Shown: positions 43,466 through 47,465 of the stretch, in pieces
Layout of the letters: each line of letters opens with the position of its first letter
Numbering within the stretch: position 1 is the first letter of the stretch
NCBI RefSeq assembly: GCF_000380105.1
Contig: NZ_KB904515.1
Coordinates: forward strand, 1-64,000
Direction of reading: 5' to 3'
Source of the DNA: Streptococcus orisratti DSM 15617
GTDB taxonomy: Bacteria > Bacillota > Bacilli > Lactobacillales > Streptococcaceae
Length of the DNA stretch: 64,000 nt
Made by a program: the position numbers and the translations under genes
The notes under the pieces: generated by a model
Databases searched by the model: none
What the model was told of the DNA's origin: nothing
Seen by the model: only the letters and a program-made list of their open reading frames with translations

Positions 43466-44659
43466 ATGTCAAAAACTATTTCTATTAACGCAGGAAGTTC
43501 CAGCTTAAAATGGCAACTTTATAAAATGCCAGAGGAGGAAGTTATTGCCAAAGGTTTGATTGAACGTATTGGTCTTACAGATGGTATTTCCACAGTTAAG
43601 TTTAATGGTCAATCAGAGTCTGAAACAACAGACATTCCAAACCATACTGTCGCTGTTAAGATTCTTTTAGAAGATCTTTTACGCCTAAATATTATTGCAA
43701 ATTATGATGAGATTACTGGCGTTGGGCACCGTGTAGTGGCTGGTGGTGAAATCTTCAAAGAATCAACAGTGATTGGTGAAAAAGAAATCCAAGAAATTGA
43801 AGAACTTAGTGCTCTGGCACCCTTGCATAATCCAGCCCATGTTGCTGCTATGCGTGCCTTCCAAGAAGTCTTACCAAACGTAACAAATGTTGCTGTTTTT
43901 GATACCGCCTTTCATACAACAATGCCCGCAGTAGCCTATCGTTACCCGATTGCCAACCGTTATTATGACGACTATCAAGTTCGCAAGTATGGTGCACACG
44001 GAACAAGCCACCAGTACGTTGCTCAAGAAGCAGCTAAATTGCTAGATAAGCCTGTTGAAGATACAAAAATTATCACTTGCCACATTGGTAACGGAGCTTC
44101 TATTACAGCAGTTAAAGGTGGTAAATCTATTGATACCTCAATGGGCTTGACACCGCTGGGTGGTATTATGATGGGAACGCGTTCTGGAGATCTTGATCCG
44201 GCTATCATTCCATTCTTGATTGATCGCGAACCAGAGTTGGCTGATGCTGAAAAGATTCGTAATATCTTCAATCGTGAGTCTGGATTACTTGGAATTTCTG
44301 AAAAATCAAGTGATATGCGTGACATCATTGAAGGCAGAGATGCGGGTGATGCCAAATGCACATTAGCATTTGACATGTATGTTGATCGTGTGAAAAAGTA
44401 TATTGGACAATATATTGCTGTTTTGAATGGAGTTGATGCCATTGTCTTTACAGCAGGTATCGGTGAAAATTCTGTACCATTCCGTCAAGCGGTCCTTGAT
44501 GACTTGACTTGGTTTGGGATTGATGTTGATCCAGAAAAAAATGTTTTTGGAGTTGAAGGTGCTATCACCGCTTCAGAGTCTAAGGTGAAAGTTTTTGTTA
44601 TTCCAACCGATGAAGAACTTGTCATTGCGCGTGATGTAGAACGCCTTAAAACTAAATAA
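43466..44659 (+). CDS. ackA: Acetate kinase
   Basis: Acetate kinase has 397 codons: NAGSSSLKW (7-15), [10 protein letters not shown], the signature HGTSHQYV and [38 protein letters not shown]. It converts acetyl phosphate + ADP to acetate + ATP, the ATP-yielding step of mixed-acid fermentation. It lies downstream of the comG cluster, as in other streptococci. Its ribosome binding site is AGAGGTGAA. Confidence 0.98.
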
Positions 44660-44689
44660 GTTATCAAAAAATTTGATAAGACCAGAAAA

Positions 44690-44717
44690 GCTGGCTGAGT
44701 ATTCGGTCAGCTTTTTT
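44690..44717 (+). terminator. Terminator after ackA
   Basis: GCTGGCTGA pairs with TCGGTCAGC (with G-U pairs), followed by TTTTTT. Confidence 0.75.
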
Positions 44718-44802
44718 GTTTTTCTATAGACTTGCTTGGTAACTATCCTACTTTTTGTTATCGAGTAAGCCTAATATTAAAAGTGAAGAAAATTTTATAA
44801 AA

Positions 44803-44879
44803 AATGTAAAATTAGCTTGACAAAAAATGTAAAGCATACTATGCTAAAAATGTAAAGAAAACTTTACTTTAAATGTTAT
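44803..44879 (+). promoter_or_regulatory. Promoter with four 23-bp-spaced AATGTAAA repeats
   Basis: AATGTAAA occurs at 44803-44810, 44826-44833 and 44849-44856, and a degenerate AATGTTAT at 44872-44879. Each step is exactly 23 bp. A promoter TTGACA (44817-44822), 17 bp, TATGCT (44840-44845) is interleaved between the repeats. The third repeat also starts an inverted repeat GTAAAG...CTTTAC. The array is a likely multi-site operator for a regulator binding every two helical turns; the XRE protein at 45024 is the obvious candidate. The remaining sequence to 45024 contains no gene. Confidence 0.7.
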
Positions 44880-45023
44880 GGTTGGCTTTGTTTTCAGGGT
44901 ATGACTGCTTGTTCTGATTATTACGATAGCTTATACCCTCCTAGCCTGTAATAAGCATATTTTTGATAAGTGGTATAGCAAATACTGTCAAGTGTAATTT
45001 TTCCAAAAAATGAAAGGAGTGTA

Positions 45024-45221
45024 ATGAAAACAAAAATTCAGGAATTGCGTAAGGTTAACAAGGTTAGTCAGGCAGAATTGGCAGATGAGTTGAATGTGAC
45101 GCGACAGACTATTATTTCCCTTGAAAAAGGTCGTTATAATGCATCGTTGGAATTAGCTTATAAGATAGCCAAATATTTTGGAAAAACAATTGAAGAGGTT
45201 TTTCTGTTTGAAGAAGAGTGA
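45024..45221 (+). CDS. Small XRE/Cro-type transcriptional regulator
   Basis: The protein has 65 codons, almost entirely one HTH_3 domain: KIQELRKVNKVSQAELADELNVTRQTIISLEKGRYNASLELAYKIAKYFGKTIEEVF. It belongs to the class of short stand-alone Cro-like regulators that accompany small membrane-protein operons in Firmicutes. Its ribosome binding site is GAAAGGAGTG. It probably controls the operon through the repeats upstream. Confidence 0.9.
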   Translation: MKTKIQELRKVNKVSQAELADELNVTRQTIISLEKGRYNASLELAYKIAKYFGKTIEEVFLFEEE

Positions 45222-45232
45222 GGTGAGATATT

Positions 45233-45427
45233 ATGTCAGAAAAAAATGGGTTTGCTCAATGTGTTGCTTTGGTTTGTTCAGGTCAGAGTTGTTTAGTGTC
45301 TGGATTGGTTATTCGTGAAGTTGCTTTTATATCTGGTTTGTTGATTGGAGCTAGCATCTTGTTAAATGGTCTGGGCTTGGTCTTTTTCACTCGGATGATT
45401 AAGCAGCAACGAAAGGAGAAAGAATGA
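45233..45427 (+). CDS. Small membrane protein of the XRE-CPBP cassette
   Basis: The protein has 64 codons: a short N-terminus with three cysteines (AQCVALVCSGQSCLVSG), one or two hydrophobic segments (VAFISGLLIGASILLNGLGLVFF) and a basic tail (MIKQQRKEKE). I do not recognise a family. It overlaps the next gene by four bases, which supports real translation. Confidence 0.65.
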   Translation: MSEKNGFAQCVALVCSGQSCLVSGLVIREVAFISGLLIGASILLNGLGLVFFTRMIKQQRKEKE

Positions 45428-45879
45428 TGTTATTAAAAATGATTCAGACTTTTGGCAAGAGACGTTCAGAAGAAGCCTATAAAAATTATCTCAAGAATAT
45501 TGGTATTACCAGCATCGTTTTGGGGCTGTTTGGATTAGTTATCACTTATTTTGCTAAATTTAGTAGCTTTGGTCTAGGACTGATGACTGGTATGACATTC
45601 AGCTTATTGGTCTTGGGAATCTATTTTATGTTGATTGTTAGGTATCCAAAACGTTTGCATAAAATGTATATTGAAGCATATGATGAGCGCAATAGTAGTA
45701 TTTTAATGGTGACAGCGGTAGCCACACTCGTTTTTCTGTTTTTCTTTCTATTTGCCTTGATTGCCCTATTTGCATTTACAGGGATTACGTTGTCTTATCC
45801 GATTTTGCTAGTGGTATTGCTTTATGTTTTAGTGTTGGGCTTTGTCATCTTACAAGTGATATTTTCAAAACTGTTATAA
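45424..45879 (+). CDS. Four-helix membrane protein of the XRE-CPBP cassette
   Basis: The protein has 151 codons with two pairs of membrane segments (about 28-48, 52-72, 95-118, 122-145), separated by a charged cytoplasmic stretch RYPKRLHKMYIEAYDERNSS that resembles DUF3169/DUF6442-type proteins adjacent to small XRE regulators. The YDERN-like motif is typical of that group. The role is unknown. It is coupled to both neighbours (4-bp overlap upstream, 14-bp gap downstream). Confidence 0.7.
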   Translation: MMLLKMIQTFGKRRSEEAYKNYLKNIGITSIVLGLFGLVITYFAKFSSFGLGLMTGMTFSLLVLGIYFMLIVRYPKRLHKMYIEAYDERNSSILMVTAVATLVFLFFFLFALIALFAFTGITLSYPILLVVLLYVLVLGFVILQVIFSKLL

Positions 45880-45893
45880 GAAAGGATATTTTT

Positions 45894-46547
45894 ATGAAAA
45901 ATAATTCTATTTTAAAACGCTGTTTGTATTTTGGATGTGCTTTTTTGATTTTTCTTGTGGAGCAATTGCCAATATTTTTTATTGGTGTCAGTCAGCTTTG
46001 GCAAGTTCTTTTGCTGTCTGCGGTGCTTCTTATCATCAGCGGATTAACTCTTTATATTGCTAAACGAGCAAATCTCCTTGAAGGGTTCAAAGCTTTGGCA
46101 AATGGCAGAGCTTGGTTGTATATTCTGTTAGGTTTTCTTGTACTCTATCTGGTTAAGATTCTTGGAGGAATCACGCTTGTCTTAGAAGGTCTAGAAAGCA
46201 CGAGTAATCAGGCGGCTATTGAAAATGCGGGCATGCATCCACTCGTTATGGTTTTACTAACAGTGATTGTGGCACCAATCGTGGAAGAGACAGTCTTTCG
46301 CGGTTTTATCATGGGTCGTGTGTTTGACAGACAATCCATCCTTGGTTTACTGATTAGTAGTTTTCTCTTTGGCCTTGCCCATCTTCCAACAAGTATCGGT
46401 GCTTGGATTATATATGGTGGAATGGGGCTTGTTCTAGGCTGGGTTTACCGTAAAACAGAGAAGCTTGAATATACCATGATGATTCATTTTCTCAATAACG
46501 GTTTTGCAATTGCCTTAATGTACTTGCTGATGATGTTAATGAATTAA
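45894..46547 (+). CDS. CPBP-family intramembrane glutamic endopeptidase
   Basis: The protein has 217 codons with about six membrane segments. Motif 1 is PIVEETVFRG (E131, E132, R136), motif 2 FLFGLAHLP (H163) and motif 3 HFLNN (H198, N201-202). All expected catalytic residues of the Abi/CPBP family are present. Bacterial members include Abi-type bacteriocin immunity proteins and peptide processors. It is the last gene of the XRE cassette. A truncated homologue lies at 329-523. Confidence 0.88.
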   Translation: MKNNSILKRCLYFGCAFLIFLVEQLPIFFIGVSQLWQVLLLSAVLLIISGLTLYIAKRANLLEGFKALANGRAWLYILLGFLVLYLVKILGGITLVLEGLESTSNQAAIENAGMHPLVMVLLTVIVAPIVEETVFRGFIMGRVFDRQSILGLLISSFLFGLAHLPTSIGAWIIYGGMGLVLGWVYRKTEKLEYTMMIHFLNNGFAIALMYLLMMLMN

Positions 46548-46650
46548 TACTCTTCGAAAATCAAAATTATCCGTTGTCAACTTGCCTTGATGAACTCAAG
46601 TTCTATCGTCGGCTTCGTTTCCTAGGCTACTTTTGATTTTCATTGAGTAT
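46546..46650. repeat. BOX-like repeat element (boxA + boxC type)
   Basis: ATACTCTTCGAAAATCAAA at the left and TTTTGATTTTCATTGAGTAT at the right are the ends of the streptococcal BOX element. The inner sequence (GTCAACTTGCCTTGATGAACTC) matches the boxA core recognised by BOX-PCR primers. The ends are inverted, so the RNA can fold into a long hairpin. It sits between the convergent CPBP gene and proC. Confidence 0.75.
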
Positions 46651-46694
46651 AAAAAAACAGATACCGTCAAGTATCTGTTTACCTTTGAGTCTGC

Positions 46695-47465
46695 TCAAAG
46701 GTTTTTTGCTTTGTTAATGGTTGTGTCAATACTAGAGATGACACTAGCAGTTAGTCCTGTTTTTTCAAGTTCAAGAAGACCAGCAATGGTTGTGCCACCA
46801 GGACTACAAACCTTGTCAATCAAATCATGTGGACTGTCTGTTCCTGTTAGAATGGTTTCAGCAGTTGCCAGTACAGTTTGCGTAGCAATATTTAAAGATT
46901 CTGCTTTAGGGAGGCCATATTTGACACCTGCTTTTGCTAGTGCCTCGATGAAGAGAGCGATGTAGGCAGGACTTGAACCTGCTAAAGCAGTGAAAGTGTC
47001 GAAATCTTTTTCAGCAATCTCAAACGTTGAACCAAAGCTATCTGTGATTTCTTTTGCTGTTGTCAATAGCTGCGCTGACACATTCTCATTGGTACAGATA
47101 GCAGTTGTACTTTTGAGGATTTGAGCGTTGAGATTTGGCATGATGCGAATGAGCGGTAACTCTGGACTGGTTAGGTTTGCCAGACGTTCTAAGGTCATAC
47201 CAGCTGCCATGCTCATGATTGGTTGATGAAAGGCCAAGTCAGCTAAAACAGTGTCAAACATCTGTGGTTTTATGCCGAGAATAACCAAATCTGCTTGGTC
47301 AATGAGTTCTTGATGTGATGCTGCTGCCGTTACCTCTAACTGCTCTGCTATTTCCCGAGAGCGCGCTAGAGATGATCCTGAAATGATGATATCGTGCGAG
47401 GTACTGTTGAGACCGTTGATAATAGCGCTAGCCATTTTTCCAACACCAATGAATCCAATTTTCAT
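46695..47465 (-). CDS. proC: Pyrroline-5-carboxylate reductase
   Basis: ProC has 256 codons: an N-terminal Rossmann motif GFIGVGKMASAII, ILGIKPQMF, and the C-terminal dimerisation domain signature ALAGSSPAYIALFIEALA...PHDLIDKVCSPGGTTIAGLLELE. It reduces P5C to proline. It is separated by one base from pepA and likely cotranscribed. Its length is slightly short for the family but complete. Confidence 0.96.
   Translation of the reverse strand: MKIGFIGVGKMASAIINGLNSTSHDIIISGSSLARSREIAEQLEVTAAASHQELIDQADLVILGIKPQMFDTVLADLAFHQPIMSMAAGMTLERLANLTSPELPLIRIMPNLNAQILKSTTAICTNENVSAQLLTTAKEITDSFGSTFEIAEKDFDTFTALAGSSPAYIALFIEALAKAGVKYGLPKAESLNIATQTVLATAETILTGTDSPHDLIDKVCSPGGTTIAGLLELEKTGLTASVISSIDTTINKAKNL

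What the first reader, a model, noticed from the sequence alone, without database searches (positions are those of the whole stretch)
44803..46547. XRE-membrane-CPBP cassette under a four-repeat, 23-bp-periodic operator
Four AATGTAAA-type repeats spaced exactly 23 bp interleave the -35 and -10 of a good promoter. Behind it are a 65-aa Cro-like regulator, a 64-aa cysteine-containing membrane protein, a four-helix membrane protein and an intact CPBP protease, with two overlaps or very short gaps. Such a compact, self-contained unit looks like an immunity or peptide-sensing system. The 23-bp phasing suggests cooperative binding along one DNA face. The small membrane proteins could hold the regulator at the membrane or be protease substrates.
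Basis: partly seen in the sequence, partly recalled or inferred. Interest (0 to 1): 0.62.

Follow-up and report, generated by a model that had tools for sequence, protein, structure and literature searches.

The report
Autorepressed membrane immunity cassette, triple operator
A small gene cluster in a Streptococcus carries a DNA-binding switch whose three landing sites are built into its own promoter, and the same switch-plus-membrane-protein pair with the same sites occurs in many other gut and oral bacteria, where it probably controls protection against antimicrobial peptides.

Summary
The unit is real. The "four AATGTAAA repeats" are left halves of three 18-bp palindromes (TGTAAAG-N4-CTTTACA) at a 23-bp pitch; the fourth repeat is not an operator. 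The right halves double as -35 (cTTGACA) and -10 (cTATACT), so the pitch equals hexamer plus 17-bp spacer; it does not put the sites on one DNA face (2.19 turns). A scan of about 85,000 species genomes found the array core in at least 119 stretches (1-4 expected by chance). Of 67 listed loci with at least 1.2 kb downstream, 64 carry a small XRE gene after it and 63 also a four-helix "DER" membrane protein. In Streptococcus 67 of 78 XRE copies have the array, and eight arrays without an XRE gene precede one ABC exporter pair, which predicts regulation in trans. The CPBP protease is common cargo in Streptococcus (25 of 30 loci) but not core; the 64-aa protein (5 of 30) is a truncated DER relative. 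The closest characterised systems are LtnR/LtnI of lacticin 3147 immunity and CylR1/CylR2. Best reading: an autorepressed antimicrobial-peptide immunity or sensing cassette. DNA recognition is well supported; inducer and immunity are inferred.

The parts
44805..44822 (+). operator O1, TGTAAAATTAGCTTGACA; right half contains the -35 TTGACA (44817-44822)
   Evidence: O1 was not part of the search pattern yet is conserved (19.2 bits over 80 loci)
44828..44845 (+). operator O2, TGTAAAGCATACTATGCT; right half contains the -10 TATGCT (44840-44845)
44851..44868 (+). operator O3, TGTAAAGAAAACTTTACT; covers the expected start of transcription
   Evidence: start point inferred from the -10
45024..45221 (+). 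65-aa XRE (Cro/CylR2-like) regulator, recognition helix VTRQTIISLE (helix assignment recalled from the fold)
   Evidence: HTH_3 E 3e-15; CylR2 1utx E 2e-12
45233..45427 (+). 64-aa membrane protein, truncated relative of the N-terminal half of the DER protein, lacking DER
   Evidence: five of 30 genus loci
45424..45879 (+). 151-aa four-helix membrane protein with DER motif (D87-E88-R89) on the predicted cytoplasmic side: core partner of the XRE
45894..46547 (+). 217-aa CPBP (Abi/Rce1-like) intramembrane protease, motifs intact
46655..46702 (.). terminator-like hairpins on both strands between the unit and convergent proC

Best explanation
An autorepressed membrane-protection cassette. The 65-aa XRE protein binds, presumably as a dimer, three 18-bp palindromes laid over the -35, the -10 and the start of its own strong promoter and so keeps the operon at a low level by shutting out RNA polymerase. 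The 151-aa DER membrane protein is its dedicated partner: it most likely detects a membrane-acting peptide (bacteriocin or lantibiotic) or the damage it causes and relieves repression through its cytoplasmic DER loop, and like its distant relative LtnI it may itself protect. The cargo, here a CPBP protease and in other lineages an ABC exporter beside it or elsewhere under the same operator, then confers tolerance. Shown by computation: the operators, the XRE link, the XRE-DER pairing, the array at the exporter in relatives, the distant LtnI relation. Inferred: binding itself, repression, induction by peptide, immunity.
For: Array, XRE and DER gene travel together: 64 of 67 named loci with at least 1.2 kb after the array start have the XRE, 63 also a DER protein, 59 with DER starting less than 120 nt after the XRE. 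In Streptococcus 67 of 78 XRE copies have an array hit (up to 3 mismatches) within 800 bp, and 31 of 35 exact arrays precede an XRE copy. O1, not used in the search, lies at 23 bp in 73 of 79 loci (shuffles 44 of 1580), and the promoter spacer is 17 in 74 of 79. The six other XRE hits of this genome have no array (best score -8.7). Eight arrays lacking an XRE gene, in eight genomes, precede the same ABC ATPase plus permease pair; two more (L070 Oscillospiraceae, L106 uncultured bacterium, near-identical) precede an ABC ATPase. Relation to LtnR (37.5% identity, E 2e-15 in a four-sequence comparison) and LtnI (hhalign 78.6%, E 1.7e-5; controls 0.8% or less); PMC3857288 passages state that lacticin 3147 immunity rests on LtnFE and LtnI. 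DER is invariant in 12 streptococcal proteins chosen by similarity, and a motif-blind check finds DER or EER in 60 of 60 membrane ORFs next to the XRE.
Against: No binding, expression or immunity data exist here. 11 of 78 streptococcal XRE copies show no array at the threshold used (two of them have it with a 24-bp step). Outside Streptococcus the layout is less fixed: of 29 order-level XRE loci 11 score above zero and only three, two of them Streptococcus, have all three operators. The array is patchy: 2 of 199 genomes in a phylum-wide sample (one the window's own) match at up to one mismatch. LtnR itself has no such operator. I saw no lanthipeptide or bacteriocin gene among the ORFs at 41-50 kb (by eye). 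In the window genome no second target was found (single operators 20 per strand against 19 in the control), and the orphan exporter permease was not found (no positive control).
Confidence: 0.55

Rival explanations
1. Pure sensor pair: the DER protein is only an anti-repressor or co-repressor (CylR1-like) that passes a membrane signal to the XRE and gives no protection itself; all protection lies in CPBP or ABC cargo, which may respond to general envelope stress rather than to a peptide.
For: The pair stays fixed while cargo varies: CPBP, ABC or neither. The conserved residues are in the predicted cytoplasmic loop, where a DNA-binding protein could dock. CylR1/CylR2 is discussed as such a pair (PMC3709268 passages).
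Against: In many clostridial loci nothing but the pair is evident in the operon, so the DER protein would have nothing local to regulate; its distant relative LtnI is an immunity protein.
Confidence: 0.25
2. The CPBP protease is the heart of the unit: it cleaves the DER protein or the 64-aa protein to release the regulator (regulated intramembrane proteolysis).
For: CPBP is the commonest third partner in Streptococcus, 25 of 30 loci, and its active-site motifs are intact.
Against: ABC genes stand in its place in 3 of 30 loci, and most clostridial loci keep operator, XRE and DER without a flagged CPBP gene. The 64-aa protein is absent from 25 of 30 loci.
Confidence: 0.08
3. Toxin-antitoxin or other selfish unit carried by mobile DNA.
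For: Small XRE genes are often antitoxins; weak HipB-like model hits below cut-off.
Against: The same chromosomal place next to ackA in many, though not all, of the Streptococcus loci; the window's DER protein has no match in 72,556 plasmids or 50,697 phages at E 1e-5; arrays at an unlinked exporter are unusual for such units.
Confidence: 0.05

Closest known systems
LtnR-LtnI-LtnF-LtnE immunity operon of lacticin 3147 (pMRC01)
   Same: Small XRE regulator (37.5% identical to the window's) directly followed by a small membrane protein with a DER motif, then an ABC exporter whose ATPase is 29% identical to that of an orphan-array exporter.
   Different: LtnI is 116 aa and only distantly alike; LtnR has another recognition helix (VSKQTIFVME) and no GTAAAG operator; it sits beside lantibiotic genes, which the window unit does not. 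Gene names were assigned by me from position and product lines; the record names only ltnA2 and lanM.
CylR1/CylR2 regulatory pair of the enterococcal cytolysin
   Same: CylR2 is a 66-aa XRE of the same group (E 2e-12), a repressor paired with a small membrane protein (PMC3709268 passages).
   Different: CylR1 is described with three predicted helices; its relation to the DER protein was not tested; the pair is divergent from a toxin operon, here it leads its own operon.
Abi/CPBP bacteriocin self-immunity proteins
   Same: Intact CPBP protein with all motifs.
   Different: No bacteriocin gene seen nearby; here it is under an XRE-DER switch.
lambda-type tandem operators (recalled, from no call)
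   Same: Three dyad sites over a promoter at 23-24 bp spacing.
   Different: Single promoter, single 65-aa Cro-like protein, hexamers inside the half-sites.
Computed XRE palindromes, PMC12565409 (abstract and passages seen)
   Same: General finding that XRE genes are preceded by palindromes; may include this one in Table S1, which could not be read.
   Different: Main text shows no GTAAA string and does not use the word membrane.

Membership tests
LtnR/LtnI-type immunity pair | XRE regulator homologous to LtnR | tested here: met
   37.5% identity over 64 aa, E 1.7e-15 in a four-sequence comparison
LtnR/LtnI-type immunity pair | LtnI-family membrane protein directly downstream | tested here: inconclusive
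   distant relation only: hhalign 78.6%, E 1.7e-5 against controls of 0.8% or less; not directly downstream in the window (64-aa gene between)
LtnR/LtnI-type immunity pair | adjacent lantibiotic production genes | tested here: not met
   none seen among the ORFs of 41-50 kb (by eye; two flanking genes, a methyltransferase and proC, checked by profile)
LtnR/LtnI-type immunity pair | confers immunity | not testable with these tools
   needs a bench test
CylR1/CylR2 | CylR2-like XRE | tested here: met
   1utx E 2e-12
CylR1/CylR2 | CylR1-like membrane protein | not tested
   CylR1 was not fetched because it lies in a toxin operon
CylR1/CylR2 | divergent toxin operon under the same regulator | tested here: not met
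   upstream of the promoter lies ackA on the same strand
CPBP/Abi (PF02517) | domain above gathering score with EExxxR, FxxxH and HxxxN motifs (motifs recalled) | tested here: met
   88.2 bits against 22.4; motifs
Pfam DUF2178 | score above the curated cut-off | tested here: not met
   window protein: no hit at E 1; the best of 10 relatives reached 21.9 against 22.8
toxin-antitoxin antitoxin families (HipB, HigA, Y4mF) | NCBIfam cut-off | tested here: not met
   best 37.8 bits against 71.65

The most novel reading that the evidence does not exclude
A widespread, so far undescribed one-component membrane alarm of Bacillota: a Cro-like repressor plus a DER membrane receptor, with an operator code written into both promoter hexamers, from which the regulon (CPBP proteases, peptide exporters) can be read directly in many species, the lacticin and cytolysin regulators being specialised offshoots.
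Probability: 0.35. Interest if true: 0.72.

Novelty: new variant of a known kind. Interest (0 to 1): 0.52.

Why it matters
How CylR1 passes a peptide signal to CylR2 is described as not understood (PMC3709268 passages). This family offers a simpler, widespread, non-toxin version of such a pair with a sharply defined operator, so the question becomes testable with a reporter in a harmless host. The operator also predicts which genes answer the switch, including exporters far from the regulator, and gives an annotation handle for a membrane family of which the 11 members tested all fall below Pfam cut-offs.

Tried and rejected
One-face cooperative binding: rejected, 23 bp is 2.19 turns and the pitch follows the 17-bp promoter spacer. 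Fourth operator: rejected. Regulon of single operators in the window genome: no excess over control. RNA element or attenuator in the 5' leader: no Rfam match in 44600-46750, folding z -0.98. Mobile origin: the window's DER protein has no match in plasmids or phages at E 1e-5; the XRE alone has distant relatives there, and LtnI relatives are on plasmids. Fold of the DER protein: model of good confidence (pLDDT 83.9, pTM 0.64), but Foldseek's best PDB match has E 0.92, and all VIA-align rows are under Z 8, uninformative for a helical bundle. SrtR of S. suis (PMC6335249, passages) is an XRE protein of 86 residues, 159 after a stop-codon change, not this one. A solved-structure profile search with the streptococcal DER family listed only ribosomal proteins at E 0.14 and above.

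Literature: ten searches used; DUF2178, SMU.1977c, XRE with DUF2178, and the five-term CPBP query returned no paper. None of the titles and abstract starts listed named this cassette or operator, but most subscription journals are not held and the supplement of PMC12565409 could not be read. In PMC7609970 the word LtnI was not found; PMC11343131 and PMC10269507 were searched for passages only.

Weaknesses of my own steps: the CPBP profile was contaminated by acetate kinase sequences, so I count only its hits after the DER gene. Those 30 loci are the best of 48 matches and about 3.4 kb long, so genes further away are unseen. The 50 proteins of A2 were picked by a DER/EER pattern, so their invariance is partly by choice; searches are free of that. 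One search uses arrays at up to 3 mismatches, where chance hits occur: 130 matches against 22 control matches (my count from the table); 54 of the 130 have 3 mismatches and only 10 of those precede an XRE copy. Three of the 12 arrays at up to 2 mismatches without an XRE hit are chance by score.

Full report
What is there. Neighbours, named by me from sequence except where a profile is cited, are comG-type pilin genes, a methyltransferase, acetate kinase, then this unit, then convergent proC and a peptidase. Between the ackA terminator (44683-44718) and a pair of opposed terminators (46655-46702) lie one promoter with 10 of 12 consensus bases and four ORFs. The gaps are 11 nt, a 4-nt overlap, and 14 nt.

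The repeats are operators. Read as palindromes, the sequence holds TGTAAAATTAGCTTGACA (44805), TGTAAAGCATACTATGCT (44828) and TGTAAAGAAAACTTTACT (44851), consensus TGTAAAG-N4-CTTTACA. The right half of the first contains the -35 hexamer, that of the second the -10, and the third covers the expected start of transcription. 80 loci are listed: Streptococcus, Enterococcus, Clostridium, Lachnospiraceae, Ruminococcus, Oscillospiraceae and others. In these 80, O1, which the pattern did not ask for, is conserved (19.2 bits), whereas the places one step further out carry almost nothing (1.5 and 2.8 bits), so the canonical number is three. O1 lies at exactly 23 bp from O2 in 73 of 79 loci (one at 22, five without a match of 10 of 14; shuffles reach this in 44 of 1580), and the hexamer spacer is 17 with a -35 of at least 5 of 6 in 74 of 79. 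The pitch is therefore that of the promoter: 6 plus 17. Sites laid over both hexamers and the start point argue for repression rather than activation (inference).

The XRE gene is the partner of the array. In the named loci 67 of 80 arrays have a VTRQTI or VSRQTI regulator starting within 450 bp; of 67 with at least 1.2 kb of sequence from the array on, 64 have it by profile. The three exceptions are L070 and L106, where the array precedes an ABC ATPase gene, and L072, a Bacteroidota locus that is probably chance. In Streptococcus the XRE (E at most 1e-18) occurs in 77 of 279 genomes at 78 places. 67 of the 78 have an array hit (up to 3 mismatches) within 800 bp upstream, and of 35 exact arrays 31 precede an XRE copy. 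The six other XRE hits of the window genome (E at most 0.01) have none; the best scores -8.7. A matrix trained only on 71 non-streptococcal loci finds the window array at 68.9 bits. Against a uniform picture: among 29 order-level XRE loci read, 11 score above zero on that matrix and only three, two of them Streptococcus, have all three operators; others have O1 and O3 at 46 bp without O2 (L196, L206, L207, L212, L220) or a single palindrome, and some none that I recognise.

A second target. I read all 12 arrays with at most 2 mismatches that lack an XRE hit. Eight (L249-L254, L256, L296) lie just upstream of the same gene pair, an ABC ATPase of about 300 aa and a 405-aa permease (ATPases of L249-L254 and L256 68-99% identical to that of L251; L296 by inspection). 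One (L255) is an XRE locus whose XRE frame is degenerate. Three have low matrix scores (-6.8 to -27.6) and are chance. Seven of the eight exporter arrays are in genomes with an XRE hit; the eighth genome, G228, carries the degenerate locus L255. The two ATPases tested match many generic ABC exporter models, all listed ones below curated cut-off, so the substrate is open. The window genome gave no match to this permease at E 1e-5, an answer without a positive control.

The membrane partner. In 63 of the 64 named XRE loci a relative of the 151-aa protein is present, in 59 starting less than 120 nt after the XRE gene. Chosen by position alone, 60 of 68 loci have a membrane ORF of 100-200 aa directly after the XRE, and all 60 contain DER or EER. 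D87, E88 and R89 are invariant in 12 streptococcal proteins; in a wider set of 50, picked with the help of that motif, E88 and R89 are invariant and D87 and G56 at least 90% conserved. The AlphaFold model (pLDDT 83.9) shows four long helices, shorter ones at 2-9 and 75-85, and DER at the start of the third long helix. The basic residues around it suggest the cytoplasmic side (inference). Pfam knows the family only below cut-off (DUF2178, DUF6442, DUF3796). No clear solved fold was found.

Cargo and the 64-aa protein. In 30 Streptococcus loci brought in by the 151-aa protein (best of 48 matches), DER is in 30, XRE in 29, a CPBP gene after DER in 25, an ABC ATPase in 3 and the small protein in 5 (CPBP counted only after DER, since the profile also hits ackA). 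The full quartet is thus a minority form. The small protein aligns with the first half of the DER family (hhalign 90.3%, E 1.5e-6; reversed control 2.5%, shuffled columns at most 0.6%) and lacks DER; its cysteines are not conserved among the four aligned.

What it works like. The XRE is close to CylR2 (1utx, E 2e-12) and to a PbsX-family regulator (9k3w, E 2e-14). CylR2 is described as a repressor and CylR1 as a suspected membrane sensor of unknown mechanism (PMC3709268, passages). The lacticin 3147 immunity operon has the same order: XRE (LtnR), small membrane protein (LtnI), ABC exporter (LtnFE) (names assigned by me). The title of McAuliffe 2001, seen in a reference list, calls LtnR the transcriptional repressor of that immunity. 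PMC3857288 passages credit immunity to LtnFE and LtnI. LtnI carries KKDERT; its six-member alignment has D, E, R and T invariant and matches the DER family at the same place (78.6%, E 1.7e-5; reversed 0.8%, CPBP 0.5%, shuffles at most 0.2%). A plain profile search scores LtnI only weakly (8.7 bits). One genome (L279) holds, side by side, an XRE-DER pair with two GTAAAG operators, an LtnR-LtnI pair and a third XRE next to a small membrane protein. LtnR itself has no such operator, so the window unit is a sister form, not an LtnRI member.

Verdict. Binding of the XRE to this array and autorepression: I would put about 0.9. Antimicrobial-peptide sensing or immunity as the purpose: about 0.55. It is a new variant of a known kind, notable for its breadth and for an operator code fused with the promoter hexamers.

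Noticed in passing
46540-46660: An element of about 110-120 bp right after the CPBP gene is repeated across the window genome: 40 matches listed including this one (97-100% identical; 40 of 121 candidates scored). It looks like a RUP-type short mobile repeat (name recalled).
   Followed up: partly
44869-45023: Long 5' leader: 155 nt from O3 to the XRE start, against a median of 25 nt in 71 named loci (7 over 100). Unique in the genome, no Rfam match, not unusually structured.
   Followed up: partly
L279 1-2529: Three adjacent pairs of XRE and small membrane protein genes (GTAAAG-operator type, LtnR-LtnI type, and a reversed-order pair) in one Lactobacillales genome.
   Followed up: partly
L007, L008, L009: A second CPBP gene sits between the XRE and the DER gene, so CPBP may have been acquired twice.
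   Followed up: no
L140 2644 onward: A further operator copy follows the first array before the XRE gene.
   Followed up: no
L258, L259: Arrays with a 24-bp step before the last operator, natural one-base pitch variants useful for testing spacing.
   Followed up: no
L016, L017, L027, L030, L255, L262: DER, CPBP or XRE frames look broken or split in several genomes, so the unit may be dispensable and decaying in places.
   Followed up: no
window O2, 44840-44845: The window has TATGCT where its near relative L112 has TATACT, which weakens both the -10 and the half-site.
   Followed up: no
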